Shown piece after piece: positions 1-56,100 of a stretch of 64,000 nt of DNA. Below the pieces are notes generated by a model. That model searched no databases. It was not told where the DNA came from and was given only the letters and a program-made list of their open reading frames with translations. Positions within the stretch are counted from its first letter, which is position 1. Every line of letters begins with the position of its first letter. A program made the position numbers and the translations under genes. This DNA is from Malassezia japonica (Eukaryota > Basidiomycota > Malasseziomycetes > Malasseziales > Malasseziaceae): the NCBI RefSeq assembly GCF_029542785.1, contig NC_083373.1, forward strand, positions 248,001-312,000, in the 5' to 3' direction.

Positions 1-216
1 TTTTCAAGGCTGGGTGAGCAAGGACACGTACAAAATCGGAGCGTTAAAGTAGGGAACGTGCTTCGGGTCGGTGCCCGCACAGAACATCTCGCCCTCGACG
101 GCGTGCTTAAAAGTACCAAACGGAATCACGTTCGCAGGCGGGCCGGCATTGGCCATGCCGCCACGCCCGCCGCGACCGCTAAATCCACCGCGTCCACCAC
201 GACCACCACGAAACAT
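1..216 (-). CDS. GAR1: H/ACA snoRNP protein Gar1, 5' part (runs off the left edge)
   Basis: Gar1 is a core protein of nucleolar H/ACA snoRNPs, which guide pseudouridylation of rRNA. The ATG is at 216-214. The protein opens with an Arg-Gly-rich tract ([10 protein letters not shown]...), followed by the conserved start of the Gar1 core ([20 protein letters not shown], then VPYFNAPI). A 22-nt intron occupies 31-10 (donor GTACGT, branch CTCAC, CCAG end). Splicing joins ATTTT to CCTTGAAAA, giving I-F-L-E-N, which matches the family after YFNAPI. Without splicing the frame stops at once. The C-terminal part lies beyond position 1. A CACGTG box sits at 262-267, 46 nt upstream of the start, between this gene and the stop of the next gene. 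Confidence 0.9.
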
Positions 217-270
217 GGTCGCTTTCCTGCAACGTTCGCGGCACTGGCAAAAAAGAAAAGGCACGTGACA

Positions 271-2476
271 CTACTTGGCGGGGCCGGGCGCCTTTGCGGC
301 GAGGTCCGCGCGGAGGGCCTGGCCGAGCGCGATGTACTCGTCGAGTACCTCGGGATTAAGGAGAGTCGATTGGTTGATGGTGCTGAGGGGTGCGCCATTG
401 ATCACTGGGTAAGTAAATAGACGTACGCTTTTTCACAGGCACCTCGACGCGCTTCCCGTTGAGCGTCTTGGGGCATCCCTTGACGCGGCGAATGTACGTA
501 GGGACGTGGCGCGCGCTGCGCTGAGCACGAATGATGCGGCGCGCCTCTTGTTCAACCGCATTCCAGTCCGCCTCGTCTGGCGTGACGAGGAAGAGGACCA
601 CGACCTCGTCGTCCTTGGCCGGGGTCTTGAGCGCGACCACGAGCGAGTCGCTGATCTTGGAGAGCGGTGAGGTCTCGGCGATCGCCTCGGAGCTCTCGAG
701 CACCTCGTAGATCTCGGCGCTGCCAAAGCGGATTCCGCTGGGGTTCAGGATACCGTCGGAGCGGCCGAGCATGACGAGGCCGCCGTGCGGCGAGCGCATG
801 ACCAGGTCGCCGTGGTACCAGACGCCTGGGTACTGGGTATAATAGCTGTCGCGGTAGCGCTCGTTCGGCTGGCGCCAGAATCCGAGCGGCTGCACAGGGA
901 ACGGCTTCTTGCACACAAGGTCGCCCTCGACCATGTCCGGCACGCGCTCGCCCTGCGAGTCAAACACGTCGACGTCCATGCCGAGCGCAATGCACTGCAG
1001 CTCGCCTGCGCGCACAGGGAGCGTGACGTTGTTCGAGGCAAAGAGCGAGCAGAGGTCCGTGCCGCCAGTGATGCTGCCGACCTGCACCTTGTGCCCCACG
1101 AGCTTTTCGCAGTAGAGGTAGAGCTCGGCACGAAGGGGCGAGCCCGTGGAGAGAATTGCACGGACCTTGAGCTTGTCGTGCAGCTCCTTGGGCTCGTAGC
1201 CGCGGCGCTCGATCATGGAGAGGTATGCGGCCGAGGTGCCAAAGACGGTGATGCCGAGCTCCGCCGCGCGCTCCCAGAGCACGCCGGTGGGGAAAGCCGG
1301 CGAGCCGTCGTACAGCACCGCGGGGCACCCGCTCAAGAGCGAACCCACGAGCCAGTTCCACATCATCCAGCCGGTCGTGGTGTGCTGGAAAAAGACGTCG
1401 TCGCGGCTCAGGCCGCCGAGCAGCAGGTGCTCCTTGCCGAACTGCAAGAGCATTCCGCCCGCACGGTGCGTAATCGCCTTGGGCTTGCCGGTTGTGCCGG
1501 AGGAAAAGAGGATCCAGAGCGGCTGGTTAAAGTCGAGCTGCTCGTACTCGATCGTCGACGCCGCCTCGCCCTTCTCCGGCGCTCCGCTCGCGAGAAAGTC
1601 GGCCCAGAGGTGGCGCGTCAGGCCATGGCCGTCCTCCTCGCCCTGCACGCCGTCCGGGCGGTCGTTGGCCTCGGGGTGCGAGCCCGGGTAGGGGATGACG
1701 ATCACATGCTCGAGGCCCGCGCGCAGCTCGTGGCGCGCGCGCTTTGCGCGCGGCTCCTCGCCGTCTTCGCCTTCGCCCTTTGCCTCGCGGTCCTGCTCGG
1801 CGAGGATGCCGGCAATGGTCGAGTTGAGCTTGGCCGTGTGGTCGTGGAGCTTGCCGTTGTACAGCACCGCGTTCACGCTAAAGAGCACCTTGGGCCGCAC
1901 GGTAAGCAGGCGCTCCAGGACACCCGCAGTGCCAAAGTCCGGCGCGACGCTCGTCCACACCGCGCCGACCGCGCTCGCAGCGAGGAACGCAATCATGTTT
2001 TCCGCCGTGTTGCTCGCGTAGCTCGCGACCGTGTCGCCGACCGTGACACCCATCTTGCGCAGCGCGCGCACCGCACTCGCGACGTGCTCACGCAGCTCCT
2101 TGTAGGTCATTTTGCGCGTGTCCTCGGCGCGCTCTGTGCACGAGATCAGCGCGATGTCCGCGTCGCGGCCGTGGTGCAGGATATTTTCCGCAAAGTTGAG
2201 GCGCGCACCAAAGAACCACTCGGCAGGCGGAAACATGGGCGCGTCCTTCGGCACGACTTCCGGCGCCTGCACGGAGGACACGACGCCGATCTCGTCCCAG
2301 ACCGCCTGCCAAAAGGGACCGAGGTGCTCGACACTCCACTTGTGCAGATCGGCGTACGTCTTCAGATCGAGGCTGTGCTCCTTGTTCACACGCTCGCGGA
2401 ACTTGTCCAGGCGCGCCTCGCCCGGCGGCGGCGTCCAGACAATCCGTCCCTGAATCGGCTCCTCTGTAAAGCTCAT
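271..2476 (-). CDS. Acetoacetyl-CoA synthetase
   Basis: This cytosolic acyl-CoA synthetase makes acetoacetyl-CoA from acetoacetate, ATP and CoA, feeding sterol or lipid synthesis. The mature product is about 727 residues, slightly longer than the roughly 670 of animal AACS. It has the ANL-family N-terminal cap (FWQAVWDEIGVV), the P-loop-like FSSGTTGKPKAI motif, and an extension of the AACS type rather than an acetyl-CoA synthetase. The ATG at 2476 was chosen because MSFTEEP begins the conserved region; the open frame upstream lacks similarity. A 22-nt intron at 426-405 (GTACGT, branch CTTAC, CCAG) restores the family C-terminus: VPVKK continues as LINGAPLSTINQSTLLNPE and ends at TAG 273-271. 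The gene is divergent from the kinase at 2587, with TCACGTGA between them. Confidence 0.93.
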
Positions 2477-4405: not shown

Positions 4406-4997
4406 ATGTACCTGCTGGGCGCGTACCTGCCGGACCACAAGCTGGTGCGCGTACGTATCCGTGCTAACGTAGATTGCGCTCACGACCTTTTACGGCATCT
4501 CGTATGATACCGCGGCGCGGATTTGCGCGCGGATTGGTGTGCACGAGCGCGCGACGGTCACGTCGCTGACTGAGGCGCAGATCACCGACTTGTCGGCCTA
4601 CCTCTCTTCGCCCGGCCTGATTCCCGCGCGTGGCCCCTCGCCGACGCGCGCGGCGGTCGCAGGGAAGGAGGCAAAAGCGCCCGAGGTGGCGACGCCCCCT
4701 CCGTCGCAGCGTGCACAGGCGTCGAGCGACCCGCTGCGCTCGATCATGATCGAAGGCGACCTTCGCCGTGAGATGCTGGGAAATATCGCGCACCACCGCG
4801 CCATTGGCACGTACAAGGGCCGGCGGCATGCGAACGGCTATCCCGTGCGCGGCCAGCGCACGCAGCGGAACGGCCTCACGGCCCGCCGCCTAAACCGCCT
4901 CGAGCGCCGGCAGCTGTCGACGGCCGCGGGCGGTGCGGCTGTGCCGTCGCTCACCGAGCTCCTTGCGCCGCTGGCGCGCCTGCGTTTTGTAGCATGA
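4406..4997 (+). CDS. SWS2: Mitochondrial small-subunit ribosomal protein uS13m
   Basis: This is a bacterial S13-type protein of the mitochondrial small ribosomal subunit. Exon 1 (4406-4450) encodes MYLLGAYLPDHKLVR. A 22-nt intron at 4451-4472 (GTACGT, branch CTAAC, GTAG) follows, then IALTTFYGISYDTAARIC, which is the S13 pattern of helix-two-turns-helix start. The C-terminal half has the diagnostic GRRHANGYPVRGQRTQRN rRNA-binding motif. A non-conserved Pro/Ala-rich insert of about 50 residues separates the two S13 blocks, as in many fungal mitoribosomal proteins. It starts 37 nt after the stop of the upstream kinase, with CACGTG at 4382-4387 in that gap. The mature protein is about 189 residues. 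Confidence 0.9.
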
Positions 4998-5024: not shown

Positions 5025-5596
5025 CTAGAACAGGTCCTCAAGCGTAAGCTGCTTGGCGACGTCGGTGTTGTTCACCATGTCGAGGAACTCGTGAAAGTCG
5101 AGTTTTCCGTCGCCGTTTTTGTCTGCCTCCATGATGGTCTTGTCGACGATCTGCTGCAGCTGCTGGTCCTTCAAATTACCACCGACCATCATCTTGAGCA
5201 CGAGAAACAGCTCGCCGTTTGAAATATAGCCGTCGCGGTCCATGTCGTAGACTTTAAAGACAACTGAATGAGTTTAGACACGTACAGTGCAGCTTCTCCT
5301 CACGGCTCCCTTGGCTGCTAAAGACGCTCAGCCCATGCACAAACTCTTGAAAGTCGACAGACCCGCCGCCGTCTGCGTCAAAGATGGAAATCAAGCGGTG
5401 CGCCAGCGGGTTGTTGGCAATGGCAGGGATCTGCAAAAACTCGTCGCGGTCGATCGAGCCAGAGCCATCGCGGTCGAGTTTCAAGAAACGTTTCTTCAAG
5501 CGCTGTATCTCTGGAGCGGAGACTGCGTTAGTCACGACACATACAGTTGGTGCTCCGCTCCATGTCATTCAGCAGCTGCGAGCCTTGCTGCCCCAT
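5025..5596 (-). CDS. CNB1: Calcineurin regulatory subunit B
   Basis: This is the Ca2+-binding regulatory subunit of the phosphatase calcineurin, which controls stress and ion responses. It has three exons: 5596-5545, 5522-5286 and 5263-5025. Two 22-nt introns separate them: 5544-5523 (donor GTATGT, branch CTAAC) and 5285-5264 (GTACGT, branch CTCAT). The spliced product is 175 residues, the usual size. It starts MGQQGSQLL, with Gly2 placed for N-myristoylation. Four EF-hands are visible: [43 protein letters not shown] and [14 protein letters not shown]. The VLKMMVG block of the family is present. It is divergent from PRE3 at 5677, with CACGTG at 5631-5636 between. Its stop is 27 nt from the convergent uS13m stop. 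Confidence 0.95.
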
Positions 5597-5676: not shown

Positions 5677-6402
5677 ATGGACGCGTTGGACGTTGCTCGG
5701 CTGAAGAAGGGCGAGGTGGACCTCGGCGTACGTGGGCTTTCTTACACAGACCTCGATTATGGCGGTCGCATTTGACGGCGGTGTCGTGATCGGCGCCGAC
5801 TCGCGCACCACCATGGGCTCCTATATTGTACGTCGTGTGGCTTATGCAGGCAAACCGCGTCACGGACAAGCTGACGCACCTTGCGGACCGCATCTACTGC
5901 TGCCGCTCGGGTTCGGCGGCGGATACGCAGGCACTTGCGGACATCGTCACCTACCACCTGCAGCTCTACTCGGTGACGCAAGAGGCTCAGCCGCCGACGG
6001 ACGTCGCCGCGAACCTCTTCCAGGAACTCATATACCAGAACAAGGACCGCCTCAGCGCGGGTATCATTGTTGCTGGATGGGACAAGCAGAAGGGGGGACG
6101 CGTGTTCAACGTCCCGCTCGGCGGCGGCGTGTTTGAGCAGCCGTGGGCGATCGGCGGCTCGGGCTCGACGTACATCTACGGATACTGCGATGCGACCTGG
6201 AAAGAGGGCTGGAATAAGGACCAGACGCTCGAGTTTGTGCAGAACGGTACGTGAATTGGCTGACCCAGCGCTGAGCCTCGCCATGCGCCGCGACGGATCC
6301 TCTGGCGGCACGATTCGCATGGCCGTCATCACCGAAGAGGGCGTCGAACGCCACTTTATTCCGGGTAACAAGCTCCCGGTGCTCGCGGCAAAGGACGTAT
6401 AG
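5677..6402 (+). CDS. PRE3: 20S proteasome subunit beta1 (caspase-like activity)
   Basis: This catalytic beta1 subunit of the 20S proteasome cleaves after acidic residues. There are four coding exons separated by three introns, each exactly 22 nt: 5728-5749 (branch CTTAC), 5828-5849 (CTTAT) and 6247-6268 (CTGAC), all with donor GTACGT. The spliced protein is 219 residues. It has a short propeptide ([17 protein letters not shown]) processed before the catalytic Thr of TSIMAV. The remaining family motifs are [31 protein letters not shown] and [13 protein letters not shown]. The first intron falls exactly at the propeptide-catalytic Thr boundary. The gene ends 17 nt from the convergent stop of the next gene. 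Confidence 0.96.
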
Positions 6403-8268: not shown

Positions 8269-8848
8269 ATGGCGACGCAGCTCGCCGTCGTGCCGACCGA
8301 GGCGGGGGCGTGCACCGCGGCGCTGTTTATCGATGCACATGAGTGGGAAGTGAGTGTATCTGTGGCGGGTGCACGGCGCGCACGGTGGTGGATCGGCACA
8401 TTTCCTCCCCAGTGCGATGCCGAGACAGCGCTGGCAGTGTGGACGTGCACGTCCCTCTCGGTCGCGTTCCTCGACGAGGACACGCCGGACGAGGACACAG
8501 ACGCGCGTACGTCCGAGACGTGCCGCATATCTATTGCTACGCCCACCCCCCTGGCGCTGGACCTCGTGCCCGCGAGCGACCGCCAAGCCGCCGCGCTTGC
8601 CGCGCGGTTCTTTTCCGCGCATGCCACGCGCCATACGGACCGCGTCGCGTCGCTTGAGGCCGCGCTACGCGACGCACGCGCCGCGCTCGACGCCGAGCGT
8701 GCAAAGTACCGCGACGTACGTCACTTTTCTCACGCAGCTCCTCGCGGCGAATCCCCAAAAAAGCGCCAAGTACTCTGCCGCATCACTCGTGCACCCCGGG
8801 CGCATCAAGCGACAGACGGATCTCGGTGGATTCGAAGGTGATCCGTAG
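8269..8848 (+). CDS. Small beta-head plus coiled-coil protein, possible PAXX/XRCC4-superfamily member
   Basis: The spliced protein is about 185 residues. One 22-nt intron (8716-8737; GTACGT, branch CTCAC, GCAG) joins AERAKYRD to LLAANPQ. The N-terminal half looks like a beta-rich head (LAVVPTEAG, ALFIDAHEWEVSVSVAG, ARWWIGTF, CRISIATPTPLALDLVPA). It is followed by a single long helix (ARFFSAHATRHTDRVASLEA..., ALDAERAKY) and a short tail SLVHPG...LGGFEGDP. That order, and the tail, resemble the NHEJ factor PAXX, whose Ku-binding tail as I recall it reads SLINPG...GGVDFDE. This is a resemblance seen by eye, not a search result. It could instead be an unrelated coiled-coil protein. The start ATG is at 8269. 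The gene ends 9 nt from the convergent stop of the next gene. Confidence 0.55.
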
Positions 8849-8857: not shown

Positions 8858-10547
8858 CTATTCCTTCAACTTGGCCAGCGCCTCGTCGCGCTCTTTTCGC
8901 AGCTGCTCCATCTCCGTCTCCAGCTCGTCTTCGCGGAAGATGCGCGACTCGACCAGCGACTCGAGCTCGGCGATCTCTTTTGCGTGCACGTCTTCCAGCT
9001 CTTTCTTGGATGCCTCGAGCTTCTTGAGCTGCGCCTGGAGCTGCTCGTCGTGCGGTGCAGCGCGCATCGACTCGATCTCCTGCCGCTCGCGCTCGTGCGC
9101 GGCCTTTTCTGCTTGGAGCGCCGCCTCGAGTTTCTTGACCTCGGCCTCGGCGCGGCGCGCGGCGTCTGCGTGCTCGCCGCTCTCTTGCTCGGCTGCGCGG
9201 ATCTTTTCCCGGAGGCTGCCGGCGGCCGCGTCGTGGGCGGTGGACGCCTTCTTTGCCGCATCGTTCGCCGCGTCGAGCTTGTCCTTGGCCTCGGCGAGCT
9301 CCTCTTCGAGGGCCGCGACCTTGTCGGTGAGGTGTGCGTTCTGCTCGCGCAAATTCGCGAGGTCAATGTCCGTCGCCGAGACGCTCGCGTCGCGCGGATC
9401 CTTGGCGAGCTGCGTCTCGAGCTCCTGGATATGCGTGCGCAGCCCCTGCTGCTCGGTGGCGGCGAGGTCGAGCTGGTGCTCAAACACGGCGATCGCTTCG
9501 CGCCCGGCGCCCTGCAGCTCCTCGATGCGGCTGCTGAGCTCGGCGCGCTCGCGGTCCCACGCCGTGACCATGGGCTTGAGCTTGGCGTCGCCCTCGGACT
9601 CGGTGCGCATCTTGTCCATCTCGGCGCGCACCGCCGCGAGCTCCGTGCGGAGCGTCTCGGTCTGCTCGCGCAGTGCCTCGGTGTCTTCCGACGAGACCTT
9701 GAGCGTCTGGAGACGCGCCTGGGCGTTCTTGAGCTCCTCGGCGACCTGCTCGTGGACGACCATCGGCACGGTGTCGTCCGCGCTACCGAGCGCTGTTGCG
9801 CTGCGGTTTTCGAGGTCCATCTGCTCCAGGAGCCCCAGGCGCCGGCTGGGATCGTCTACGGACGCCGGCGCCGGGGCGTCGAACGAGAATCCACTCGGCT
9901 CGCGCCGCGGCGTGCGCAAAACGCTCGTCGGGCGTGCGTGCCCTGCCGCGGACGTCGGGCGGCGGACCGAGCGCGGCATGGACGTGGTGCGCGTCGCCTG
10001 CGGCGTCGCACTCAGGCCGCTCGGGCGCGCAAAGGTGTGAGGCGTGCGGACGCCGGGCGACAGCATGCCGCGTGCCGGCGTCCTGCGCTGCGGCGTCGCG
10101 CTCGGCAGCGGGACGTTGGACTGCCGCGCGCGCGATGGTGGCCGCTCCTCGGAGCGCGATGCGCGGCCCGAGAGCGACGACAGCGGCCGGGCCGTCGCGC
10201 TCGAGGGCCGTGTGGTCGAGAGGTGCACGAGCTTGGCCGACGGGCCAAACATGCCGTTGTTTGGCGTCGTCGCAAAGTATTGCACACTACATCAGCAAAG
10301 AAACGCACCCCTGGATCGTTCCGTCGTTCTTTCCTTGGCCGACCGACGCGCCGATCAGCTCGAGGCCGGCAAAGTGTCCGTCGCGTCCCTCGACCGGGCC
10401 GAGGTAGCGCAGGACGCCCGTGAGATCACTTCCTTCGAAGCGGACTTCGTCGCCGATCTCCATACGTCTGGATGGCGTCGCGGCGCCCGCGCGCGAGACG
10501 CTGCTCTGCCGCGCGAGCGACGCTCTTGGTCGGCGCACCCCGCTCAT
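8858..10547 (-). CDS. CAP-Gly coiled-coil microtubule plus-end protein (CLIP-170/Bik1/Tip1-like)
   Basis: The spliced product is 555 residues. Exon 1 (10547-10309) encodes a Ser/Arg-rich leader and most of a CAP-Gly domain (VRFEGSDLTGVLRYLG, GHFAGLELI, GKNDGTIQG). A 22-nt intron (10308-10287; donor GTGCGT, branch CTGAT, GTAG) leads to VQYFATTPNNGMFGP, completing the domain with the usual G-x-Y-F...G-x-F end. Next is a Ser/Pro/Arg-rich linker rich in TPRR/TPQR sites (likely kinase targets), then a coiled coil of about 330 residues to the C-terminus. No CCHC zinc knuckle, present in Bik1 and CLIP-170, is seen at the end. It probably tracks microtubule plus ends and helps dynein loading. It is head-to-head with NudE, 46 bp apart. 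Confidence 0.85.
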
Positions 10548-10593: not shown

Positions 10594-11753
10594 ATGACCG
10601 CGGGGGAGGCGCGCTTTGGCAGCGCCGCCGAGGAGGCGGCGCACTACAAGGCGCAGGTACGGAGCATGCAGGATGCGCTGCAAGAGGCCGAGAATGGGCT
10701 GCAAGAGTTTATGGAGTCGAGCAAAGAGCTCGAGGCGGAGCTCGAGGCGGATATCGCGCAGAGCACCGCGCGTGCGGACGAGCTGCAGGCGGAGAACGAG
10801 TCGCTGCGGCTGGACGTGGACGAGTGGCGGGTGCGTTGTGTGTCTGACGCAGGGAAAGTACCAGCAGTCGCTCTCTGAGCACAATGCGACGCTCGGCGAG
10901 CTGCACCGCGAGCTGTCCAAGCTGCGGGAATCGCACGACGCGTACAAGACCAAGCTGCGCGACATGGAGCTCGACAATGACGAGCTGGAGAATGCCGAGC
11001 GGTGCGTATCTCTGCTAATGCAGGATGATCAACTCGTCGCTCACCGACATGGAGGGGCGGTACAACTCTGCGATGGAAAAAACGGCGCTCCTCGAGTCGG
11101 AGCTCGAGGACAAGACGCGGCTCGAGGAGGAGAACCAGCGCCTGAAAGACGAGCTGCGCGACCTGCGCGAGGAGCTCGCCATCGTCCAGTCCGCGCCGCG
11201 CCCCGACGATGACCTGCAACTGAGCGACCTGGTGGTCAAGGCGCCCAAGCCCACCAAGAATACCCTCGAACGCCTGCGCGAGCACATGCAGCAGCTCCAG
11301 GTGCGCCTGCACACCGCACAGACCCCGGTCGGCCGGCCGAACGAAAAGAGCGCGCTGCCGCGGCCACGCTCGAGCCTCTCCCACTCGCAGAGCGGCTCAC
11401 CGTGGCGGAGCCAGACGCCGGTTGGCGGCCGTGCGACGCCCGCGCGGCCCGAGACGCCGAACAGCGCCCGCACCGACCGCCGCAAGTCGAACTCGTTCAT
11501 TCCCGTGCCGACCAACGGGCTGTCGCGCTCAGCGTCGCGCCGGCCGACGTCGCGCCTCGGCGCCGTGTCTCCGACGCACGTCCCGTACGAGTTTATGGAG
11601 CACGACCCGTCGCTGTCGCCCGGCACGCGCCGCGCAAGTGTCGCGCGGCGGCGGTCCATCTCGCAGGTGCCCGCACCCAACACGCCGCGGCGTGCGGCCT
11701 CGCCCAGTAAGTTGCGTGCTTCGCCTACGAAGCCAGTAGTCCCATGGCGCTAG
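10594..11753 (+). CDS. NudE/Ndel1-family dynein regulator
   Basis: This 371-residue protein has three exons. Two 22-nt introns, 10831-10852 (GTGCGT, branch CTGAC) and 11002-11023 (GTGCGT, branch CTAAT), separate them. The N-terminal 180 residues form one long coiled coil (AAHYKAQVRSMQDALQEAENGLQEF..., then EWRGKYQQSLSEHN..., MINSSLTDMEGRYNSAMEKTALLE). This is the NudE domain that binds Lis1 and dynein; the second intron falls just before M-I-N-S-S-L. The rest is Ser/Pro/Arg-rich and probably disordered, with many SP/TP sites. With the neighbouring CAP-Gly gene it makes a divergent microtubule/dynein pair. Its TAG stop (11751-11753) directly abuts the convergent YAK1 stop. Confidence 0.88.
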
Positions 11754-14176
11754 CTACCGATCCCAGTCGTCCTGCCGCGGCAGCTGGTTCACATACATTG
11801 GAAGGAGACTCGCCGAGTCCCGCTGCCCTTCTTCATAGCGCGGCCGTGCGGGCGACGCGCCAGCGTACCGCGGCGTGTACGCATCGGTGGGCAGGTGCAG
11901 TGCCTCGCCCGAGCTGAGCGACGCGTGCCGCGCGCGCCCGTACGGGCCGCGGAACGTAGAGGGCGAGTAGGCCTGGTCGGCCGGTGCGTGGGGCGTCGCG
12001 TGGGCGTGGGGCGTCGCGTGCGCATGCGGCGAGGCGTGCGCATGCGGTGTCGACCGCGGCGGGTCAAACGTGTCCTTTCCGTGCACGACCACCGCAAAGC
12101 CCCCCTGCTGGGGATAGACCGGCGCGTCGGATGCGAGTGGCGTCGAGCTTTCCCACGCATAGTCGCGGTTGTAGCTGTGCGCCGGTGGAGGATACGCGGT
12201 CGGGCGCGGGGCGTACGCATTGTAGTGCTCTTCGGTGTTGGAGTAATAGTCCGGGCGGCTCGGGTAGTACTCGTCGCGGGGCGACTCGAGCGGCGTCGCG
12301 GGCGGCGGCTGCCAGGGCGCGTGAAAAGGCTCGCCGGTGATAAACGGATGCAGCTTGGCCTGCTGTGGCGTCCAGCGCGTCAGCGGATCAAGGCAGAGGA
12401 GGCCGGCGACAAAGTCGGTGAATGCCGCGCGATTCGCCATCTCTTTCTCCGTGTCGGCCTGGCGGCCGCTGCGCCGCGATACCGGCGCGAGGCGGATAAT
12501 CTCTGGGAGCGTCGTGCCCGGAAAGTACTGCTTGCTCGCCTGCTCCTGCGCGCGGTGCTCGCGCGAGTACTGCTCCATGGGCTTGACCGAGTACGACAGG
12601 CGCCCGTAGGCGTCCTGGTGCGAGTTGAAAAACTCGCGCGTCTGCCGCCCGGTGTCGAGCATGTACTGCGGCGGAAGACCGAGCATCTCGACGATGCGGC
12701 TCACCTGGTTGTACTCCGACGTGCCTGGAAAGATGGGCAGGCCGAGGAAGAGCTCGGCGGCGATGCATCCCAGCGACCACATGTCGATCGCCGAGGTGTA
12801 CGGCACGCCGAGCAGCACTTCGGGCGAGCGGTAGAAGCGCGACTGGATATACGTATAGACCGTCTGCTGCTCGTGGCACGCCGAGCCAAAGTCGACGAGC
12901 TTGATGCTCGGCGCCTGGAGCGTGCGCAGCAGAATGTTTTCCGGCTTCAAATCGCAGTGGATCAGCCGCGCGTCTTTGAGGACGATGAGCGCGTCGAGGA
13001 GCTGCGTGATAAAGACGCGCACCAAACTCGTGCTCAACCCACGGAACGAGTTTTGCTTGATCAGCTCGTAGAGGTTCGAGGAGAGCAGCTCAAAGACCAG
13101 GCACAGGTGCTTGGCGTGAATAAACGTATCCTGGAGCCGCAGAATGTTGTGCTTGTCGTCCGCGTCCCAGTGCTGGTTGAGCGTCTCGAGGATGGTGACC
13201 TCCATCATGCTCTGGTTAAAGTAGGCAGTCTTGTTCTTAATGACTTTGACCGCAACGATCTCGTGCGTCGCCATGTTCTGGCACTTGACGACCTGCCCAA
13301 AGGTGCCTTGGCCGAGCACGTCGAGGATCAGGTAGCGGTGCCCGTCCTCGGAGCCGAGCCAGTCGTTAACGTAGAGAATATAGTCGTAGTCCTCGTTGTC
13401 GTGCCCGTCGTTGTACATCGGCTTGCTCGGCTTTGTCAAGACACGCCGCGGGTTGAATGCAAGCTCGTACACAAACGACGGATTCACCAAGTGGTACGTG
13501 TGGTGCAGATTCGTCGCGAGCGCTTTCAGTGGCTGGGTCAGTCGAGAATACGTACGCTCACAAAGCCGCCGTTCGGGTCAGCACGGCGCTGCTTCATCAC
13601 CATCGTACTATTGTCCAGCATCGGTCGCAGATCGTCCAGCGAGCGCACCTGCCAGAACCCCTCAAACTGTGGCTGGCCGGGGCGCTTGGTCGGCACATGC
13701 ACCTGCGTTGTGGCGGCGGTGGTGGCGGTGCTCACCGACGAGGTGCGCGACGAAATCGGCTCCATCTTGGCACCAGGCCCCGACGCACCCTCTTCCGACG
13801 ACGAGCTCGAGGAGAAGCTCGACGCAGAACGCGCCGAGCACGACGACGAGACGGGCGTCGTGACGCCGGCCTCGCGCATCGTCTGCGCATAATGGCTGCT
13901 GCTGCGCATGCGATCGCTCAGCCGCCGCACATTCTCCTTCGCAACGACAACGGGATTCGACTCCTCCGTGTCGTTATCGTGGTCGGTCTGCGACGATCGC
14001 AGCTCCTCGTCGCTTCCCTCCTCGTCGCTCGCCTGGGGGTAGGTATAGGCACCGCGCGACGCGCCGTACGAGCCACGCTCAACGTCGAGCACGTCATCCA
14101 CCCCAGTCGATGGCCATGCATCCGCACCGCCGTCGACGCCATCGCGCGCGCCGCGCAGTCGCGTACTGCTCGCCAT
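11754..14176 (-). CDS. YAK1: DYRK-family kinase Yak1
   Basis: Yak1 is a growth-restraining kinase acting opposite PKA/TOR signalling. The protein is about 799 residues. Exon 1 (14176-13556) is Ser-rich and ends ...RADPNGGFVS. A 23-nt intron (13555-13533; GTACGT, branch CTGAC, CCAG) leads to PLKALATNLHHTYHLVNPSFVYELAFNPRRVLTKPS, the Yak1-specific pre-kinase box. The kinase domain follows: LGQGTFGQVVKC, AVKVIKN, IHCDLKPENIL, KLVDFGSAC, and the DYRK activation loop YTYIQSRFYRSPE with its autophosphorylated Tyr. The C-terminus is Pro/His/Tyr-rich, with HAHA(S/T)PHAHATPHA repeats. I took the ATG at 14176. Another in-frame ATG at 14227 is only 12 nt from the stop of the upstream gene. Confidence 0.93.
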
Positions 14177-14239
14177 GGTCGGGGCTGGCGGGGCGCAGCG
14201 CCGCCGCACCGCATTTTTACTAAGCATTGGAACACGCCA

Positions 14240-17124: not shown

Positions 17125-17626
17125 CTATGGGTGGTGTGGGGTATCGGTGCGCAGGGTAGGCGCGTCGGGCGCGACGAGCCGACGCTTTTTGCTCGGCTCG
17201 GTTTCGGTTTCTTTGGCACGCTGCTGTGCGGCCTTTTTTTTTTCGCGGCGTGCGCGGTTTTTCGACGTTTTTCGCTCGTCCTCGGCGCGCACCTGCTCCT
17301 GCTTTGCAGCAAACTCCGCCTGCACGGTTTCCTGGGTGAGAAGAGGGGCCTACCTTTTCTGCGCGCTCCGCCATGATGCTCAAGCGCTCGTACTCGCGCT
17401 GCCGCGCCTGTTTGTACACGTGAAACTCGCCGGAGCCAGCGCCGGCCGTGCTGCTGCTGACATTCTTGACAATGTCTGGCGGCGGCTTGATCGTCTTTTC
17501 CTTGCTCGGCTCGGGCAGGCTCACCGGTTTGTCCGGATTCTCGAATAGTTTGCCGATCGCGTTGGCCTGCAAGCCGAACGGCGTGTACTTCTGGCGCTTG
17601 TCCTCCCGGGGCTGGTCGGCGCTCAT
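17125..17626 (-). CDS. PRKRIP1-family nuclear protein (DUF1168)
   Basis: This 159-residue protein has the family signature GKLFENPDKPVSLPEP, the proline block IKPPPDIVKNV, and SSSTAGAGSGEFHVYKQARQREY near residues 60-85. A long basic helix follows, rich in Lys/Arg/Glu. PRKRIP1 homologues are spliceosome-associated RNA-binding proteins in animals. A 22-nt intron at 17353-17332 has the non-standard donor GTAGGC, branch CTCAC and CCAG. It joins MAERAEK to ETVQAEFAAKQEQ. The ATG at 17626 is only 32 nt from the divergent ATG of the RAMP4-like gene. Confidence 0.88.
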
Positions 17627-17658: not shown

Positions 17659-17939
17659 ATGGTGCGCCGTCCGACTTACGTAGCCGTCCGAACGCGATAT
17701 CCGTGCTCGTAACGAAAAGTTTGCCAAGAAGGCGCGCGAGACGCAGAACGTGCGCGGCGCAGGTGGCGCTGCGCGTGGTCTCGTGCACAAGTCGCAAGAA
17801 GCGAAGCGCGACGAGCAGTCGCCGTCGTACGTGCGCTACCTCGCCCTCTTTTGCCTGCTGGTCCTCGCGGGCGGACGTACGTACTTTCACTGACGCAGTG
17901 ATCCTCGAGCTGATCTATGTGCTTTTCCGTGCCTTGTAG
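17659..17939 (+). CDS. YSY6: RAMP4/SERP1 (Ysy6) homologue with an ATG-only first coding exon
   Basis: This is a 78-residue tail-anchored ER protein associated with the Sec61 translocon and ER stress. The first coding exon is only the ATG at 17659-17661, preceded by an in-frame TGA. A 22-nt intron at 17662-17683 (GTGCGC, branch CTTAC, GTAG) follows. The protein then reads M-PSERDIRARNEKFAKKARET, matching the family N-terminus (MP...RxxNxKFAK). After a polar region the transmembrane helix is YVRYLALFCLLVLAGGLILELIYVL in outline. A second 22-nt intron (17877-17898; GTACGT, branch CTGAC) falls inside this helix. Unspliced reading hits a stop after about 17 codons. The gene is too short and split to appear as one open frame. 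Confidence 0.85.
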
Positions 17940-23433: not shown

Positions 23434-23488
23434 TCGCAACCGGCGCGTGCTGACTCAGCACACCCGCTTGCGCGCGGCCACCAGGGCG

Positions 23489-32092: not shown

Positions 32093-32132
32093 CTAATACT
32101 ATTCCCAAGGGAATCCCCCACTAGCAAGTGTC

Positions 32133-34355: not shown

Positions 34356-34571
34356 TTTCCTTTTGTTGTAGTTTCATCATGCAGACCCTTTAGTACACAG
34401 TATATCAGTATCCCTTGCGCGCCCGTGCACTTTTCGCGCATCCGGCCGACGCCGATTGCAGCCGCAAATCTCTCCGCAGTCACACGTGTAGGACGTGATT
34501 ATGCGATTGGCTACAAAAAAATAGTCGGCACACGACACCAAATTAAGCTACATCCGCGCGTTGAGCAGGCC

Positions 34572-34580
34572 TTTAAAATA
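34572..34580 (+). promoter_or_regulatory. TATA-like box of sphingomyelinase copy 3
   Basis: TTTAAAATA begins 46 nt before the ATG at 34618. The spacing is the same as for copies 2 and 4. Confidence 0.55.
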
Positions 34581-34617
34581 GAGAAGCAATACAGAATGGC
34601 ATCCTCACCCACTCAAC

Positions 34618-36867: not shown

Positions 36868-37051
36868 GCGTAGTTTCGTAGTTGTGGTTTCGGTTTGCTA
36901 AATTTCATGGACAATGCGCACGGACCCCCTCGTGCCCACCGCCGCCGCGTTTGGGCTGGGTTGGCACGTGCGAATCCGCAGCGGCCCATTGGCCCCGCCC
37001 CAATTAATGCCGGAGGGTGTGGAGAATGAAACTTGGCGCCTGTCGTGTGCA

Positions 37052-37058
37052 TTAAATA
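37052..37058 (+). promoter_or_regulatory. TATA-like box of sphingomyelinase copy 4
   Basis: TTAAATA begins 46 nt before the ATG at 37098. CACGTG lies further upstream at 36965-36970. Confidence 0.55.
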
Positions 37059-37097
37059 GGCGCGGTTCGCACCGGCTTCCCTCCCCACCTTGCTGCC

Positions 37098-39329: not shown

Positions 39330-39412
39330 TAGCTTGGTTTTTAGAATGCAATGTGGCACGTGCGATCTTTGTCCAATCCAGATCGAGGCGCGCCTGCGCG
39401 CTGTCGTGGACC

Positions 39413-42211: not shown

Positions 42212-43563
42212 CTAGAACGCGCCGCGGTCGCTATACCGCTTCCAGCGCTGGCCCGACGAGTTGCGCCGAGGGTCCGCAGCGTAGAAGTCGGTGTCGTCGT
42301 CCTGCGGGTAGAGCCGCGAGCTGCGGCGGGGCGCCGCGTCCATCTCGTATTGGTCCACGTCCAGGTAAGGGTCATGGCTGCGACGGCGCACCTCGCGGCT
42401 CTTGCGGCGCGAAGGCACGTCATATTCGTAATCGTAATCGCCTGAGCTCTTGTGGGGAAGGAGGTCCGCGCGGCTCTCGCGGGCATGTGACCGGCCGCTG
42501 TGACGGCGGGAGTGGCCACCGTGGTGGTGGCTGCTGCTGTGGCGGCTGTGGCGGCGGTCATCCTCGATGTTCCGCGAGCTCCGCTTCGCAGGCACGCTGC
42601 CGGCGTGCGCGGGGTCGTAGACCATGGACTGGCGGTTGGGCGCCGGCGTCAGAGCCGAATCGTACGGCATCGAGGTGTCGTAAGCACGGCCCATGCCAGT
42701 CGACGCAACCGGCGCGGGTGCCGGGGCGGGTGCCGGGGCAGGGGCAGGGGTAGGGTCGGCGTAGATTTGGCTAGGACCATAGTCGTCGTAGCCACGGCCG
42801 ATGTTGTGGTGGGGCGTGCTGTAGTCGTAGAAGTCGTCCTGCTTCTGGTAGGTGGGAAGCGGCGTTTCGTACGTCCGACTCTCGTCGTGCGTGGGCCGGT
42901 TCATCGACCAGGCAAGGGCGATGAAGAAGAAACCGACAATCACGGCGGCCGTCGCGGCGACCTGGAGCCAGAGCGCGGGGCCGAACGACACATCGGTCGA
43001 TTCGACGTAATTAGCCGAAGAAAGCTGATCCCGGAGAGTATCGCGGCCCTTGATGAACATGATCAGCTCAATGACTAGAGTAGCGATCGAGAGCAGCGCA
43101 GCCCAGAAAGCAGCGAGTGTGAACAGCAACGAGTTGGAGCACATGGCAAGCAGCGCAGCACCCGCTGCCAGACCAGTAAAACCGGCCGATATAGGCTGGA
43201 GAACGAGAGCATAAGGGAGATTGTTAATGAAAGGAAGGGGAGTGTTCAGACCATTTGAGCCACCGCCGAACAGGTTTCTGATCGATTCCTGCTGGTAGCC
43301 CAGGCCCACTGCACTGCAATTATGCCCCGACGACGAGTTAACACAGATGCCCCAGATACCGAACTAGACATGAGCGTTTATTCAACGTACCAGCAACTCT
43401 TGGCCGGCCCCGGCAATTAGTTTCATAAAGTACAGTCCTTTAATGTACGGAAGCGAGACCGAGTTCTGCGTGAGTTTTTGCAACTTACCACAAGCTGCAA
43501 AACGAACGACGCTCCGATCAGGAGGAAGCCCAACAGGGCCGCAAGGCGGCCAGCTGTGCTCAT
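42212..43563 (-). CDS. PalI/Rim9-family (SUR7-like) four-TM membrane protein
   Basis: The spliced product is 433 residues. Exon 1 (43563-43489) encodes MSTAGRLAALLGFLLIGASFVLQLV, the first TM. A 23-nt intron (43488-43466; GTAAGT, branch CTCAC) leads to NSVSLPYIKGLYFMKLIAGAGQELL. A 27-nt intron (43390-43364; GTACGT, branch CTCAT) leads to FGIWGICVNSSSGHNCSAVGLGY. This carries the W-G-x-C signature of the SUR7/PalI family. Three more TM segments lie within residues about 85-200. The long cytosolic C-terminus is Pro-Ala repeats, His/Ser/Arg-rich and Tyr-rich. Rim9/PalI assists the ambient-pH receptor of the Rim101/PacC pathway. SUR7-type eisosome function is the alternative. Confidence 0.83.
42716..42755 (+). 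repeat. G-rich tract with seven G runs, quadruplex-prone
   Basis: Seven runs of three or four G are separated by 1-4 nt. They encode (on the minus strand) Pro-Ala repeats in the C-terminal tail of the PalI-like protein. The G-rich strand is the template strand. Confidence 0.7.
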
Positions 43564-47500: not shown

Positions 47501-47870
47501 ACCGGTGCAGTGGAACGCCCATGGGAAGAGCGCGCGCTTGCCGCACATGCGCTCGTAGCCCGTGGCGAACTCGACCTTGGACAGGGTAAAGGCGTGTCCG
47601 AGGTGCAACGAGCCGTTCATGTAAGCGTAGGGGATCGTCGCAAAGAACTTGGGGTACTTTGCCCGGATCTCCTCCGGCGACATATCCTTCAGCTCGGCAT
47701 CGTTCGTCGGCGCGTCCACGTCAAAGACATGGTGGTCCTGCCACTCCTTCTGGTACTTTTGTTCGAGCGACCGCAGAAAGTCACGCTTCGAGGTCTGGGT
47801 CAGCACGGCAACGTACATTTTCAAGCTTAATGGGGCCTGCCGCAGGCGCCGCCGCAGGTTTCGCACTCAT
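44549..47870 (-). CDS. CDC60: Cytosolic leucyl-tRNA synthetase
   Basis: This 1099-residue class I synthetase is of the archaeal/eukaryotic type. The true start is the ATG at 47870. An 18-codon exon (MSAKPAAAPAAGPIKLEN) is joined by splicing of a 22-nt intron (47816-47795; GTACGT, branch CTGAC, CCAG) to TSKRDFLRSLEQKYQKEW. This rebuilds the family N-terminus KLENTSKRD. The HIGH motif is HLGH in YMNGSLHLGHAFT, and KMSKS is in NGAKMSKSTGNSLSL. The CP1 editing region lies between (for example TLRPETMYGQTNCYVGP, KGTGVVTSVPSDSPDDW). If the intron is kept, an ATG created across the exon-intron junction (47818) gives an in-frame alternative start MYVAVLTQTSKRD. It is divergent from MED12, 102 bp apart. 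Confidence 0.96.
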
Positions 47871-52094: not shown

Positions 52095-52649
52095 TCAAAA
52101 CTGCGTTAGCCGTAGGACGTACAGTGCCTAGATACGACTCCGCCACGATACGTGCACGGGCGTTGAGCGAGAGCTTCATCTCGCTGATTTCCTTGTCGAC
52201 CTCCTCCATGAACTGGATGACAAAGTCGACGAGCTTGTGCTTGAGCATCGACGCGGTGTGCGTGTTGGTGATCAGGAACGAGATATCGTAGCCCGGGATC
52301 GGTTTCCGCCGCAGCACAACAAAGTTCTCGGCGCGCTGCATCATGAAGCGCGTAAACTTGTGTGCAAGGATATGCTCGATCTCGTCCGCCTGTTTGATCT
52401 TGATGCTCAGACGCACACTGTTCACCGCCGGCTCAATCAGCACGACCTCGTGCTCGTTCCGGCTGATGGTCAGCGGCGCAAGGACCACCTCGGGCGTCGT
52501 CTGCGCCTCGATTTCGGGGATATTGTGGCGCTCGACGACCTGCGACGCAAAGTCCTCCAGCGTCAGCGCAGCAGTGAGCGACGCGCGCACGCACTCCAGG
52601 TACGGCCGCAATGTATTCGACTGGGTCAGTGCACCCCGCAACGTACCAT
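52095..52649 (-). CDS. ARC19: ARP2/3 complex 20-kDa subunit (ARPC4), with ATG-only first coding exon and a one-residue last exon
   Basis: The spliced protein is 168 residues, the same size as animal ARPC4. The first coding exon is ATG alone (52649-52647, context CCACCATGG). A 26-nt intron (52646-52621; GTACGT, branch CTGAC) leads to [33 protein letters not shown]. The body is highly conserved (VTISRNE-like [59 protein letters not shown]). A 22-nt intron (52122-52101; GTACGT, branch CTAAC) joins SYLGT to TTT-TGA, giving the family's C-terminal Phe. Reading through either intron gives longer but wrong ends. It nucleates branched actin at endocytic patches. Confidence 0.95.
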
Positions 52650-53172
52650 GGTGGGGAGATGATTCGGCCGACGGGACGTCGCGGCGGTGGATCTCCATCG
52701 GCCGAGGAGGGTCGGTGGTGGTGAGCAGGGGAATGGCGAGCGCCGGCAGCGCCGGGCTATGCATGGTGTATGTGGTCCAAGGCGCTTATGAGCCGCATAG
52801 GCTACCGCACGGCATGACACGATTTGGGCCTTGACGGCACCATCACCACCAACACCAACACCAACACTACGACCACCCCCACGACCCATGCTCCCTACGC
52901 TCAATCATCCTGCATTGCTAGCTACACACACTCCATAGTCGATCCCCTCTTCATCACGTCCTCCTGACCCTCTTCGCCTCGGGACGGAATTTCTCGCCGG
53001 CTGCGCGCCGCCCACTTGCGGCCGAGAGGCTGGTTGGCTGGTAGCGAACGCACCGCACCCGATGGCGAGCAGCGCATATCCACGTGGGATTCGCCGCCCC
53101 CGGTGCCGAAATTCGAGTCGCCGCAGTGCAACGCCTTGCCCTGTAGCCGCCGCGCCTGCGTTGGCAACGGAT
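52650..53172. other. 523-bp divergent promoter region ARPC4/CHD1
   Basis: This holds the divergent upstream regions of ARPC4 and CHD1, CACGTG at 53081-53086, and an ACCACC/ACACCA-rich microsatellite at 52838-52890. No ORF with support was seen; the frames here are shadows or the false upstream extension of ARPC4. Confidence 0.65.
52838..52890 (+). repeat. Imperfect (ACC/ACACCA)n microsatellite
   Basis: The stretch is nearly free of G on the + strand and consists of CACCA-type units. It is non-coding and lies in the promoter region between ARPC4 and CHD1. Confidence 0.7.
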
Positions 53173-56100
53173 ATGGCGTGTACGTCGACTGTCCACTCAC
53201 CCAGCGTACCCCGACGCAGAAAGCCCACGCGTGGCCGATGCGGAGATGCTAGAGGCACAGACCGATGCGCCTTCGCGTCCGGTCCCCCCCTCGTACACCC
53301 CCACGCCCCCCCCCGAGTTACGCCGGCACCACCGCCCTGAGCTGGCGGACGCGGAAGCGAACCCCGACCTGTACGGCCTGCGCCGCTCTGGCCGTGCGCC
53401 TGCGCGCCGGACGTATGCGCTCGACGCGAGCGACGACGAGGCGCGTGCGGAGCGCTCGAGTGCCTCGGCCGCCTCGGACGACGAGGAGGCGGACGAGGAG
53501 GACGAGTTCCCCGTGAGCCGCCGCCGCCGGCGCGAGACACACGAAAGCGACTGGGGTGCAGCCGTGCGCATGTCGAGCCGCAACGGCGGCAAGGTGAACT
53601 ACACCGAGGACTACCACGACATTGGTGACGAGGACGTGTTTGAAGACGAGGTCGTGCCGGTCGCCGCCGCGCCGATGGCCGAGGTCGAAGAGGACCAGAT
53701 TGAAGGCGTGTTTGGCCACGAGCGCGACGAGTCGCGCGCGGACGACCCCGAAGATATCCCTACCGAAAACATGCGCTTTGTGATCAAGTGGAAAGGCTAC
53801 TCCCACCTGCACGATACGCACGAGCTCTACGAGTTCCTGAAGCGCTTCCCCGGCTTTAAGCGCGTGACGAACTACATCAAGGGTGTCTGGCAGCCGATCC
53901 ACGAAATCTCGACGAACCCCGAGGCGACGCGCGAGGACCTCGAGACGCTCCAGATCCAGCGCGAGCGCCAGCGCGAGCTTCTCGAATCCTACCGCACGGT
54001 CGACCGCGTGATTGCGCAGCGCGACAATCCGCCGACGAAAGAGGCCCCGTACCCCCACCTTGCCTACCTGTGCAAGTGGAAGGGCCTCGGCTACAACGAG
54101 TCCTCGTGGGAGAGCGAGGAAGAGATTGCACAGATCGCACGGCCCGCGATCGACGCGTACCTGCGCCGCGCGACGTCGGTCACTGTGCCGAGCCGCAGCG
54201 AGACCTTCTCGCGCGGCCGCCCGCCGTACGTGCGCATGACCGAGCAGCCCAAATACATTGGCGACCACGGCACGCTGAAAGACTTCCAAATGACCGGTCT
54301 CAACTGGCTCGCATACCTCTGGAGCAAGAACGAGAACGGGATTCTCGCCGACGAGATGGGTCTCGGCAAGACGGTGCAGACGGTCGCCTTCCTCTCGTAC
54401 CTCTTCCACTCGTGCTACCAGTACGGTCCGATGCTTGTCGTCGTCCCGCTCTCGACGCTGCCCGCGTGGCAGGTGCAGTTTGAGCACTGGGCGCCGGACA
54501 TGAACGTGATTGCCTACATGGGCAACTCGCAGAGCCGCGAGGTGATCCGCGAGTACGAGTTCGGGCCGCCCCGCAAGATGCGCATGAACGTTTTGCTGAC
54601 AACCTATGAGTTTATTCTCAAGGACCGCGCAGAGCTACAGCCGATCAAGTGGCAGTTCCTTGCCGTGGACGAGGCGCATCGGCTCAAGAACGCCGAGTCG
54701 CAGCTGTACGAGGCGCTCTACTCGTTCCACTGCGCCGGAAAACTGCTCATCACCGGCACGCCGCTGCAGAACAACGTCAAGGAGCTCTCGGCGCTGCTGC
54801 ACTTTTTGCGGCCCGACCAGTTCGACCTGGAGGTCGACTTTGACATTGCCAACGTCGACCAGTCCAAGATCCAAGAGCTGCACCAGCGCTTGGAGAATGT
54901 CATGCTTCGGCGACTGAAGCGCGATGTCGTCAAGGAGCTGCCGACCAAGTCGGAGCAGATCCTGCGTGTGGAAATGTCCGCGATGCAGCAGCGCATGTAC
55001 AAGGCGATCCTCACGCGCAACTTTTCGCTGCTCAGCGGCGCCACATCGACCCAGTTCTCGCTGCTGAACATTGCGATTGAGCTCAAGAAGGCGTCGAACC
55101 ACCCTTACCTCTTTGACGGCGCCGAAGTCCCGTCCGAGAGCCGGGAGGAGACGCTGCGTGGTCTCGTGATGCACTCGGGCAAGATGGTACTCCTCGACAA
55201 GCTCCTCGCGCGCCTCAAGGCAGATGGGCACCGTGTGCTGATCTTTAGCCAGATGGTGCGCATGCTCGATATCCTTTCTGATTACCTGTCGTTCCGCGGC
55301 TACGTGCACCAGCGCCTCGACGGCACGGTGTCTTCTGAGACGAGGAACCGCGCGATCGACCACTTTAACGCGCCCAATTCCCCCGACTTTTGTTTTCTTC
55401 TTTCGACGCGCGCGGGCGGTCTCGGTATCAACCTCGAGACGGCCGACACGGTAATCATCTTTGACAGCGACTGGAACCCCCAGAACGACCTGCAGGCCAT
55501 GTCGCGTGCGCACCGCCTCAACAGCAAGTTCCACGTGAGCGTCTTCCGCTTCCTCACCAAAGGTACGGTGGAGGAGGACGTGCTGGAGCGCGCCAAACGC
55601 AAGATGGTGCTCGAGTACGCCATCATCAACCAGATGGACACGTCTGGCACCAACTTTGCGCCGAACGCGCTGCACAAGAACTCGCAGAACTTCTCACGCG
55701 AAGAGCTCGGCGCGATCCTCAAGTTTGGCGCGCAGAGCATGTTCAAGAGCGACAACGAGGACGGGCAGCAGAAGAAGCTCGACGAAATGGATCTCGACGA
55801 GATTCTTACGCACGCCGAGGCACGCGAGACCGAGGTCGAGAACAACACGACCTCGTCGGGTGGCGAGGCATTCCTGCAGCAGTTTGCCCAGGTCCAAGAC
55901 TTTAAGGCGGACGACGTGTCCTGGGACGATATCATCCCCGTCGAGGAGCGTGTCAAGGCCGAGGAAGAGGAGCGGCAGCGCGCGGTCGAGAGCGCGATTG
56001 CCGCCTCGTCCTCGCGCCGCCGCGCAGCGGTCGCCTCGGCGACAGCCACGGCAAGTGTCGCCGAGGCCGACGAGGAGCCCGAGGCGAAGCCGAAAAAGAC

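What the first reader, a model, noticed from the sequence alone, without database searches (positions are those of the whole stretch)
10..53204. Intron set with a nearly fixed 22-nt architecture and a fixed branch point
I reconstructed 27 introns from protein continuity. Nineteen are exactly 22 nt: 10-31, 405-426, 4451-4472, 5264-5285, 5523-5544, 5728-5749, 5828-5849, 6247-6268, 8716-8737, 10287-10308, 10831-10852, 11002-11023, 17332-17353, 17662-17683, 17877-17898, 23082-23103, 24424-24445, 47795-47816 and 52101-52122. All 19 fit donor(6)-N7-CTNAY-NNAG, with the branch A at intron position 17. The other eight are 23-27 nt (13533-13555, 22951-22976, 23183-23206, 23653-23678, 43364-43390, 43466-43488, 52621-52646, 53180-53204). 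Seven of these keep the branch A 5 nt from the end and only lengthen the spacer; 43364-43390 is the exception. None is shorter than 22, which looks like a hard lower limit of this spliceosome. Every intron either shifts the frame or, at 24 and 27 nt, carries an in-frame stop.
Basis: seen in the sequence. Interest (0 to 1): 0.85.

Follow-up and report, generated by a model that had tools for sequence, protein, structure and literature searches.

The report
Tiny 22-nucleotide introns in Malassezia yeast
This skin yeast's genome carries well over a thousand apparent spliceosomal introns that are exactly 22 letters long and hardly any that are shorter, because both distances inside the intron sit at an apparent minimum, which makes the intron a ruler for how small the splicing machinery's working space can be.

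Summary
The window is from a Malassezia yeast (8.43 Mb, 9 contigs). Genome-wide, GTACGTN7CTNACNCAG occurs 1784 times against 0 for the reversed pattern; at 15-21 nt it occurs 5 times against 3, none at 21. A gene decode knowing only GT...AG still spiked at 22 nt (37 of 105); three dinucleotide controls did not. Alignments or domains run through 16 of 27 junctions, 2 of them at protein ends. Refinement: 22 is the sum of two floors, 17 nt from donor to branch A and 5 nt from there to the end; introns lengthen either but shorten neither above background. Published Stentor introns share the 5, not the 17. U2, U6, Slu7, Prp18, SNRNP27 and a METTL16-type gene are present; U1 was not found. By-product: a 3-nt and a 7-nt exon between three 22-nt introns encode a Rieske CPWH motif, which the listed M. 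furfur protein lacks. 'Very short introns' in Malassezia are in print; I did not see this architecture in the listings and passages I saw.

The parts
10..31 (-). 22-nt intron in a gene whose spliced frame reads as a GAR1-like protein (name by eye, not searched)
   Evidence: frame continuity with 701 bases upstream of the window
405..426 (-). 22-nt intron, AMP-binding (acyl-CoA synthetase-like) gene 271-2476
   Evidence: junction lies outside the Pfam domains
4451..4472 (+). 22-nt intron, ribosomal protein S13 family gene 4406-4997
   Evidence: family match, but the best stretch shown does not span the junction
5264..5285 (-). 22-nt intron, calcineurin B gene
   Evidence: ungapped 175-residue alignment to 6tz8_B runs through the junction
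5523..5544 (-). 22-nt intron, calcineurin B gene
   Evidence: same alignment; not recovered by the decoder
5728..5749 (+). 22-nt intron, proteasome beta-1 (PRE3) gene 5677-6402
   Evidence: PRE3 alignment runs through the junction
5828..5849 (+). 22-nt intron, PRE3 gene
6247..6268 (+). 22-nt intron, PRE3 gene
8716..8737 (+). 22-nt intron, gene 8269-8848 without a Pfam match
   Evidence: no Pfam family; the unspliced reading does not stop early here
10287..10308 (-). 22-nt intron, CAP-Gly protein gene 8858-10463
   Evidence: CAP_GLY domain 3-70 spans junction at residue 51.7
10831..10852 (+). 22-nt intron, NUDE_C-domain gene 10594-11753
   Evidence: outside the NUDE_C domain
11002..11023 (+). 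22-nt intron, NUDE_C-domain gene
   Evidence: just outside the NUDE_C domain
13533..13555 (-). 23-nt intron, protein-kinase-like gene 11754-14227 (named by eye)
17332..17353 (-). 22-nt intron, donor GTAGGC, DUF1168 gene 17125-17626
   Evidence: DUF1168 31-139 spans junction at residue 91; the unspliced reading meets no stop within the model
17662..17683 (+). 22-nt intron directly after the start codon, RAMP4-like gene 17659-17939
   Evidence: frame; RAMP4 match starts just after the junction
17877..17898 (+). 22-nt intron, RAMP4-like gene
   Evidence: RAMP4 2-72 spans junction at residue 65.3
22951..22976 (-). 26-nt intron, Put_Phosphatase gene 22552-23433
   Evidence: Pfam 33-263 spans it; alignment with 11 relatives
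23082..23103 (-). 22-nt intron, Put_Phosphatase gene
23183..23206 (-). 24-nt intron with in-frame stop, Put_Phosphatase gene
23653..23678 (+). 26-nt intron, PP2A-like catalytic subunit gene 23423-24472
   Evidence: PP2A alignment runs through the junction
24424..24445 (+). 22-nt intron near the 3' end of the PP2A-like gene
   Evidence: beyond the aligned part
43364..43390 (-). 27-nt intron with in-frame stop; 7 nt after the presumed branch A; SUR7-family gene 42212-43563
   Evidence: SUR7 9-192 spans junction at residue 50; in-frame stop; the decoder preferred a 99-nt version
43466..43488 (-). 23-nt intron, SUR7-family gene
47795..47816 (-). 22-nt intron, cytosolic leucyl-tRNA synthetase gene 44549-47870
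   Evidence: frame; alignment begins at residue 17, junction after residue 18
52101..52122 (-). 22-nt intron before the last codon (F) of an ARPC4 gene
   Evidence: full 168-residue alignment to 1k8k_F
52621..52646 (-). 26-nt intron directly after the start codon of the ARPC4 gene
53180..53204 (+). 25-nt intron near the 5' end of a CHD1-type remodeller gene ending at 57325
   Evidence: gene identity

Best explanation
These are ordinary two-step, U2-type spliceosomal introns of a Malassezia yeast, trimmed to the smallest size its spliceosome accepts. The size is the sum of two separate minima: 17 nt from the first intron base to the branch A (6-nt donor, 7-nt spacer, CTNA), and 5 nt from the branch A to the AG. 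Deletion pressure in a compact genome pushes introns down to both floors, and below either floor splicing fails. Shown: the motif, the length spike, the absence of shorter spacings above background, frame and protein continuity for part of the set, U2 and U6 with their usual pairing sequences, and matches to Slu7, Prp18, SNRNP27 and the METTL16-type family. Inferred: that the A is the branch nucleotide, that the segments are removed from RNA, that deletion pressure drives the trimming, and that the floors are steric. On this reading the 5 reflects docking of the 3' splice site in step two. The 17 reflects closing a loop that must hold both the donor/U6 helix and the branch/U2 helix.
For: Strict pattern 1784 at 22 nt vs 0 reversed; 5 vs 3 at 15-21 nt, none at 21; 461 vs 15 at 23-53 nt. 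GT...AG-only decode: 37 of 105 at 22 nt, three controls without a spike. Decode with learned donor and acceptor letters: 60 of 144 at 22 nt, 23 at 23 nt, 1 below 22; all 60 have CTNAY with A at position 17 although branch and length were not scored. Joint table, GTACGT donors: 63 at (17,5), 8 at (17,6), 11 at (18,5), none at distance 4, and no A at 10-16 with 4-10 nt to the end. Protein continuity. U6 with ACAGAGA, U2 with GUAGUA, Slu7 (31), Prp18 (32), SNRNP27 (39), a PF05971 methyltransferase with NPPF (34, 90). Stentor: 15-nt introns with branch A at position 10, hence also 5 nt to the end (PMC9505925, passage).
Against: No RNA data. U1 was not found by model or by 5'-end pattern. With a relaxed motif, 10 matches of 15-21 nt occur in 264 kb against 3 in the reversed sequence; I treat them as background but did not examine each. 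With relaxed donors the joint table has 2 counts at distance 4 (control 5) and 22 at branch positions 10-16 (control 21), so the floors there are seen only against background. The published mean intron length of M. globosa is 79 nt (PMC4634964, passages), so a floor of 22 need not apply to the whole genus. The decoder also reports longer introns; 7 of its 27 in the window look like errors. In 2 of 16 gene models the unspliced reading does not stop before the natural end. A floor in a length distribution does not by itself show a steric cause.
Confidence: 0.78

Rival explanations
1. Introner-type burst: the 22-mers are recent copies of one mobile intron, so the fixed length is ancestry and not a spliceosomal limit.
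For: Uniform length and donor; mild spacer preferences such as C at position 9. Pairs of spacers sharing 5 of 7 letters are in slight excess (171 seen, 141 expected, reached in 2 of 200 shuffles).
Against: Pairs sharing 6 or 7 of 7 are not in clear excess (24 vs 21.7 and 3 vs 1.3; reached in 63 and 28 of 200 shuffles). Longer introns spread upward from both floors.
Confidence: 0.06
2. The length is set by recognition and not by catalysis: donor and branch/3' motif are read as one fused 22-nt signal by a U1/U2 pair held at one spacing, so longer introns are merely poorer substrates.
For: At 22 nt motif and spacing are nearly invariant. 23-nt introns are far rarer: 45 of the first 100 listed of 461 longer strict matches, against 1784 at 22 nt. 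One paper, citing another, says that nucleomorph introns of 21-27 bp are spliced less well than those of 18-20 bp (PMC5014332, passage).
Against: Lengthening is tolerated in either interval, so spacing is bounded from below and not locked.
Confidence: 0.2
3. The segments are not removed: they are frameshift elements or assembly artefacts in genes read another way.
For: No RNA evidence was available here; in 2 of 16 gene models (8269-8848 and 17125-17626) the unspliced reading does not stop before the natural end.
Against: Spliced proteins align without a gap at the junctions to solved structures; the unspliced reading stops before the natural end in 14 of 16 window gene models; a shared motif with a fixed branch-like A is unexplained by errors.
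Confidence: 0.02

Closest known systems
Tiny introns of Stentor coeruleus (PMC9505925; abstract, two sections and one passage read)
   Same: Near-fixed length; branch A at a fixed position; 5 nt from branch A to the end (15-nt introns, A at 10; 16-nt, A at 11); core snRNAs present
   Different: Stentor introns are 15-16 nt, A/U-rich, without a strong branch consensus and with GUA as the stringently conserved donor; here 22 nt, a six-base donor, a strong CTNAY, and 17 nt to the branch A
Trichomonas vaginalis short (type B) introns (PMC12316389, passages)
   Same: Very short; branch site fused to the 3' splice site
   Different: 63 introns in all, one of 23 nt called among the shortest known, a 12-nt branch/3' motif; here at least 1784 pattern matches at 22 nt with a shorter branch-to-end interval
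Chlorarachniophyte nucleomorph introns (18-20 bp) and Paramecium/Nyctotherus introns (about 25 bp) (PMC5014332, passages; the word chlorarachniophyte is recalled)
   Same: Genome-wide reduction to one narrow length
   Different: Different lineages; no branch-position data were read for them here
Malassezia 'very short introns' in print (PMC7426719 passage; M. restricta annotated with minimum intron length 20, then 15, PMC6473144 passages)
   Same: Same genus; short introns acknowledged
   Different: No length mode, branch position or floor is stated in the passages seen; M. globosa mean given as 79 nt (PMC4634964, passages)
Micro-exons (for the by-product): 1-nt exons in plants (PMC8831610, passages); a micro-exon in Trichoderma, with the statement that functional ones had not been described in filamentous fungi (PMC11121469, passages)
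   Same: Exons of a few bases, often missed by annotation
   Different: Here a 3-nt and a 7-nt exon lie between three 22-nt introns in a yeast; inferred from sequence only

Membership tests
U2-type spliceosomal introns | GT...AG ends and a branch-site consensus that can pair with U2 | tested here: met
   All 27 GT...AG; CTNAY at a fixed place in 60 of 60 decoded 22-mers; U2 GUAGUA present
U2-type spliceosomal introns | Removal restores a conserved protein frame | tested here: met
   14 junctions inside an alignment or domain plus 2 at the ends of ARPC4, of 27
U2-type spliceosomal introns | Spliceosomal machinery encoded in the genome | tested here: inconclusive
   U2, U6, Slu7, Prp18, SNRNP27 found; U1 not found; U4 and U5 not searched
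U2-type spliceosomal introns | Removal from RNA as a lariat at the branch A | not testable with these tools
   Needs RNA-seq and lariat reads
Stentor-like tiny introns | One length dominates, with branch A fixed relative to the 3' end | tested here: met
Stentor-like tiny introns | 15-16 nt with branch A at 10-11 | tested here: not met
   No excess below 22 nt with the strict motif; branch A at 17
Introners (mobile intron families) | Near-identical intron copies | tested here: not met
   No clear excess of spacer pairs alike at 6 or 7 of 7 positions among 97 introns; slight excess at 5 of 7

The most novel reading that the evidence does not exclude
The spliceosome has two independent length limits that a genome under strong deletion pressure exposes at once. 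The 5-nt branch-to-3'-splice-site limit is shared by a yeast and a ciliate and so belongs to the active site. The donor-to-branch limit (17 here, 10 in Stentor) is set by how many bases of donor and branch helix the lineage insists on. In such genomes independently spliced 22-nt introns permit exons of a few bases, down to 3 nt, encoding essential residues.
Probability: 0.4. Interest if true: 0.75.

Novelty: new variant of a known kind. Interest (0 to 1): 0.6.

Why it matters
The smallest intron a spliceosome can process is a physical constraint usually estimated from engineered substrates; human work cites about 50 nt between donor and branch (PMC6692369, passages). Here some 1,800 natural pattern matches, perhaps 3,000 by extrapolation, sit at both limits in a yeast. 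They give exact numbers (17 and 5) for structural models, and a natural test of which factors are needed at short range: Slu7 and Prp18 are retained although, from recall, they are dispensable in yeast assays when the branch-to-end distance is short. It also matters for annotation: gene finders with larger minimum introns, or blind to 3-nt exons, mis-translate such genomes, as the listed M. furfur Rieske protein appears to show.

Tried and rejected
Loss of Slu7 or Prp18 as an adaptation to short branch-to-end distance: rejected, both match over the family cut-off. Loss of METTL16 or SNRNP27K behind the unusual +4 base: not supported, both families match over cut-off and the methyltransferase has NPPF; PF05971 also rings in 5 of 14 control genomes, bacteria and an archaeon, so the orthology is likely but not proven. 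A U1 with a base change that pairs with +4C: not settled. Rfam U1 gave no match in a search that rang nowhere; ATACNTACCTG plus GGGG gave none; ATACNTACCTG gave 17 places, none with T at N. The 6 with G were the ones fetched of the 17, and they held no U1. Introner copies: not supported. 3n avoidance: not evident, 24 and 25 nt have 14 each of the first 100 listed longer matches. Naming the species: not done; best named relatives are M. yamatoensis 83% and M. furfur 81%. Paper searches with Malassezia among the terms; one for Stentor. Three papers asked for by DOI are not held.
Full report
What the window is. GC is 63.8%. The window is C4:248001-312000 of an assembly of 8,433,779 bases in 9 contigs. 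A CHD1-type protein from it matches Malassezia proteins best among named entries (98% to an unnamed entry, 83% to M. yamatoensis), and a phosphatase matches M. furfur at 81%. The host is a Malassezia yeast; the species was not determined.

Observation. All 27 segments are GT...AG on the strand implied. A scan for GT[AG][ACT]G[TC]-spacer-CTNAYNNAG found 18 at 22 nt, all of them claimed, where about 0.3 are expected. The nineteenth claimed 22-mer has G at +4 and fits the wider motif used.

Test without the motif. I trained codon statistics on 68 long open frames in 264 kb (window plus C1:20001-220000). I then decoded genes allowing introns of 8-80 nt bounded only by GT and AG, all lengths equal. 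Of 105 introns, 37 were 22 nt, 13 were 23 nt and 5 were below 22. The control boundaries TG..GA, GA..TG and CT..AC gave 87, 78 and 89 'introns' with no spike (3, 4 and 2 at 22 nt). After learning donor and acceptor letters, but no branch or length term, 144 introns were decoded: 60 at 22 nt, 23 at 23 nt, 1 below 22. All 60 22-mers carry CTNAY with the A at position 17. In the window this decoder placed 27 introns: 20 claimed ones at exact ends and 7 unclaimed ones of 47-156 nt that look like errors.

Genome-wide. GTACGTN7CTNACNCAG: 1784 against 0 for the reversed pattern. The same motif with spacers 0-6 (15-21 nt): 5 against 3; the five are 17-20 nt long. Spacers 8-38 (23-53 nt): 461 against 15; a few of the longest listed span two neighbouring introns. 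Of the first 100 of those listed, 45 are 23 nt, 14 are 24 and 14 are 25. In the held 264 kb the relaxed motif finds 97 where the strict one finds 56, so the genome may hold about 3,090 of the 22-nt class; this is an extrapolation. Against this, the relaxed motif also gives 10 matches at 15-21 nt where the reversed sequence gives 3; these were not examined singly.

Two floors. For GTACGT donors in 264 kb I tabulated branch position against distance to the end. The corner (17, 5) holds 63; (17, 6) 8; (18, 5) 11; (18, 6) 2. No count appears at distance 4. Branch positions 10-16 hold 4 counts, all at distances of 11-14, where the reversed control has 3 over those rows. With relaxed donors the corner holds 97; distance 4 holds 2 (control 5) and positions 10-16 hold 22 (control 21), so again nothing exceeds background. 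Introns therefore grow in either interval and shrink in neither.

Protein continuity. Spliced calcineurin B aligns without a gap to 6tz8_B over 175 residues (two junctions). Proteasome beta-1 aligns to yeast PRE3 over residues 4-205 (three junctions). ARPC4 aligns to 1k8k_F over all 168 residues (two junctions, after residues 1 and 167). The PP2A-like subunit aligns over residues 4-291 (one junction). Pfam domains span one junction each in the CAP-Gly, DUF1168 and RAMP4 genes, three in the phosphatase gene and two in the SUR7 gene. That makes 14 junctions inside an alignment or domain plus 2 at protein ends, of 27. The leucyl-tRNA synthetase alignment begins beside its junction. The first intron (10-31) restores an open frame once upstream bases are added. 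The unspliced reading stops before the natural end in 14 of 16 gene models; the genes at 8269-8848 and 17125-17626 are the exceptions.

Machinery. U6 is present with AUACAGAGAAGAUUAGCAUGG and U2 with GUGUAGUAUCUGUUC. Slu7, Prp18 (two pieces), SNRNP27 and a METTL16-type methyltransferase with NPPF and a 22-nt intron motif of its own are present; the last family, PF05971, also matches in 5 of 14 control genomes, so orthology is likely and not proven. U1 was not found; one search warns that nothing rang anywhere, so this is not absence. The donor is mostly GTACGT: +4 is C in 88%, G in 10%, T in 2% and A in none of the 60 decoded 22-mers. A +4A/+4U rule tied to METTL16 and SNRNP27K was reported for Saccharomycotina (PMC10581693, passages; the word Malassezia does not occur in its main text). 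Here both families are present with +4C.

Mechanism. U6 pairs with the donor and U2 with the branch site. At 22 nt the donor ends at position 6 and CTNAC begins at 14, leaving seven bases to close the loop before branching, and five bases from the branch A to the end for the second step. Stentor has 15-nt introns with branch A at 10 and 16-nt ones with A at 11 (PMC9505925, passage), hence the same 5. Its donor is stringently conserved only at GUA and its branch consensus is weak. I infer that 5 is an active-site limit and that the donor-to-branch limit depends on the helices a lineage keeps. In human extracts a short donor-to-branch distance needs Smu1 and RED (PMC6692369, passages); these were not searched here.

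Micro-exons. At C1:403157-403232 (-) three 22-nt introns are separated by 3 and 7 nt. Splicing all of them gives ...VVV-CPWH-QYDF..., which I take, from recall, as the second ligand motif of a Rieske domain. Pfam Rieske scores 33.7 bits with the 3-nt exon and 21.5 without it. Of 15 relatives that I chose to align from 37 hits, 14 have CPWH; the listed M. furfur protein has VVVW-WHQYDF, which is what results here if the two introns and the 3-nt exon are read as one 47-nt intron. Exons of 8, 12, 14, 15 and 17 nt lie between motif introns in the 264 kb. Exons as short as 1 nt are known in plants (PMC8831610, passages).

Novelty. Fixed tiny introns are known in ciliates, nucleomorphs and Trichomonas, and 'very short introns' are stated for Malassezia (PMC7426719, passage). 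In the listings of my searches and the passages I opened I saw no Malassezia length mode, branch position or double floor. Most subscription papers are not held, including the M. sympodialis proteogenomics paper (title recalled), so this is a limited statement.

Noticed in passing
L043 (G000:C1:402600-404000), minus strand; C1:403157-403232: A 3-nt exon (CCC) and a 7-nt exon between three 22-nt introns encode the CPWH motif of a Rieske-domain protein.
   Followed up: yes
P0253 (M. furfur entry) against L043: The listed M. furfur protein reads VVVW-WHQYDF where 14 of 15 aligned relatives have CPWH, consistent with a missed 3-nt exon in that gene model.
   Followed up: partly
P0125 (M. equina entry) against window 23183-23206: Extra residues WYVYASNQ sit in the listed M. 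equina protein at the junction of this intron, consistent with a retained 24-nt intron in that gene model.
   Followed up: no
G000; donors in 264 kb: Donor +4 is C in 88% of 60 decoded 22-mers although METTL16-type and SNRNP27 families match; U1 was not found and none of the 17 ATACNTACCTG places has T at N.
   Followed up: partly
window 32133-41722: Four adjacent + strand genes of about 740-770 codons; the two whose frames were scanned (32097-34355, 37056-39329) are both calcineurin-like phosphoesterases, so this may be a tandem array.
   Followed up: partly
C1:20001-220000 (L009-L028): Exons of 8, 12, 14, 15 and 17 nt lie between motif-bearing introns.
   Followed up: no
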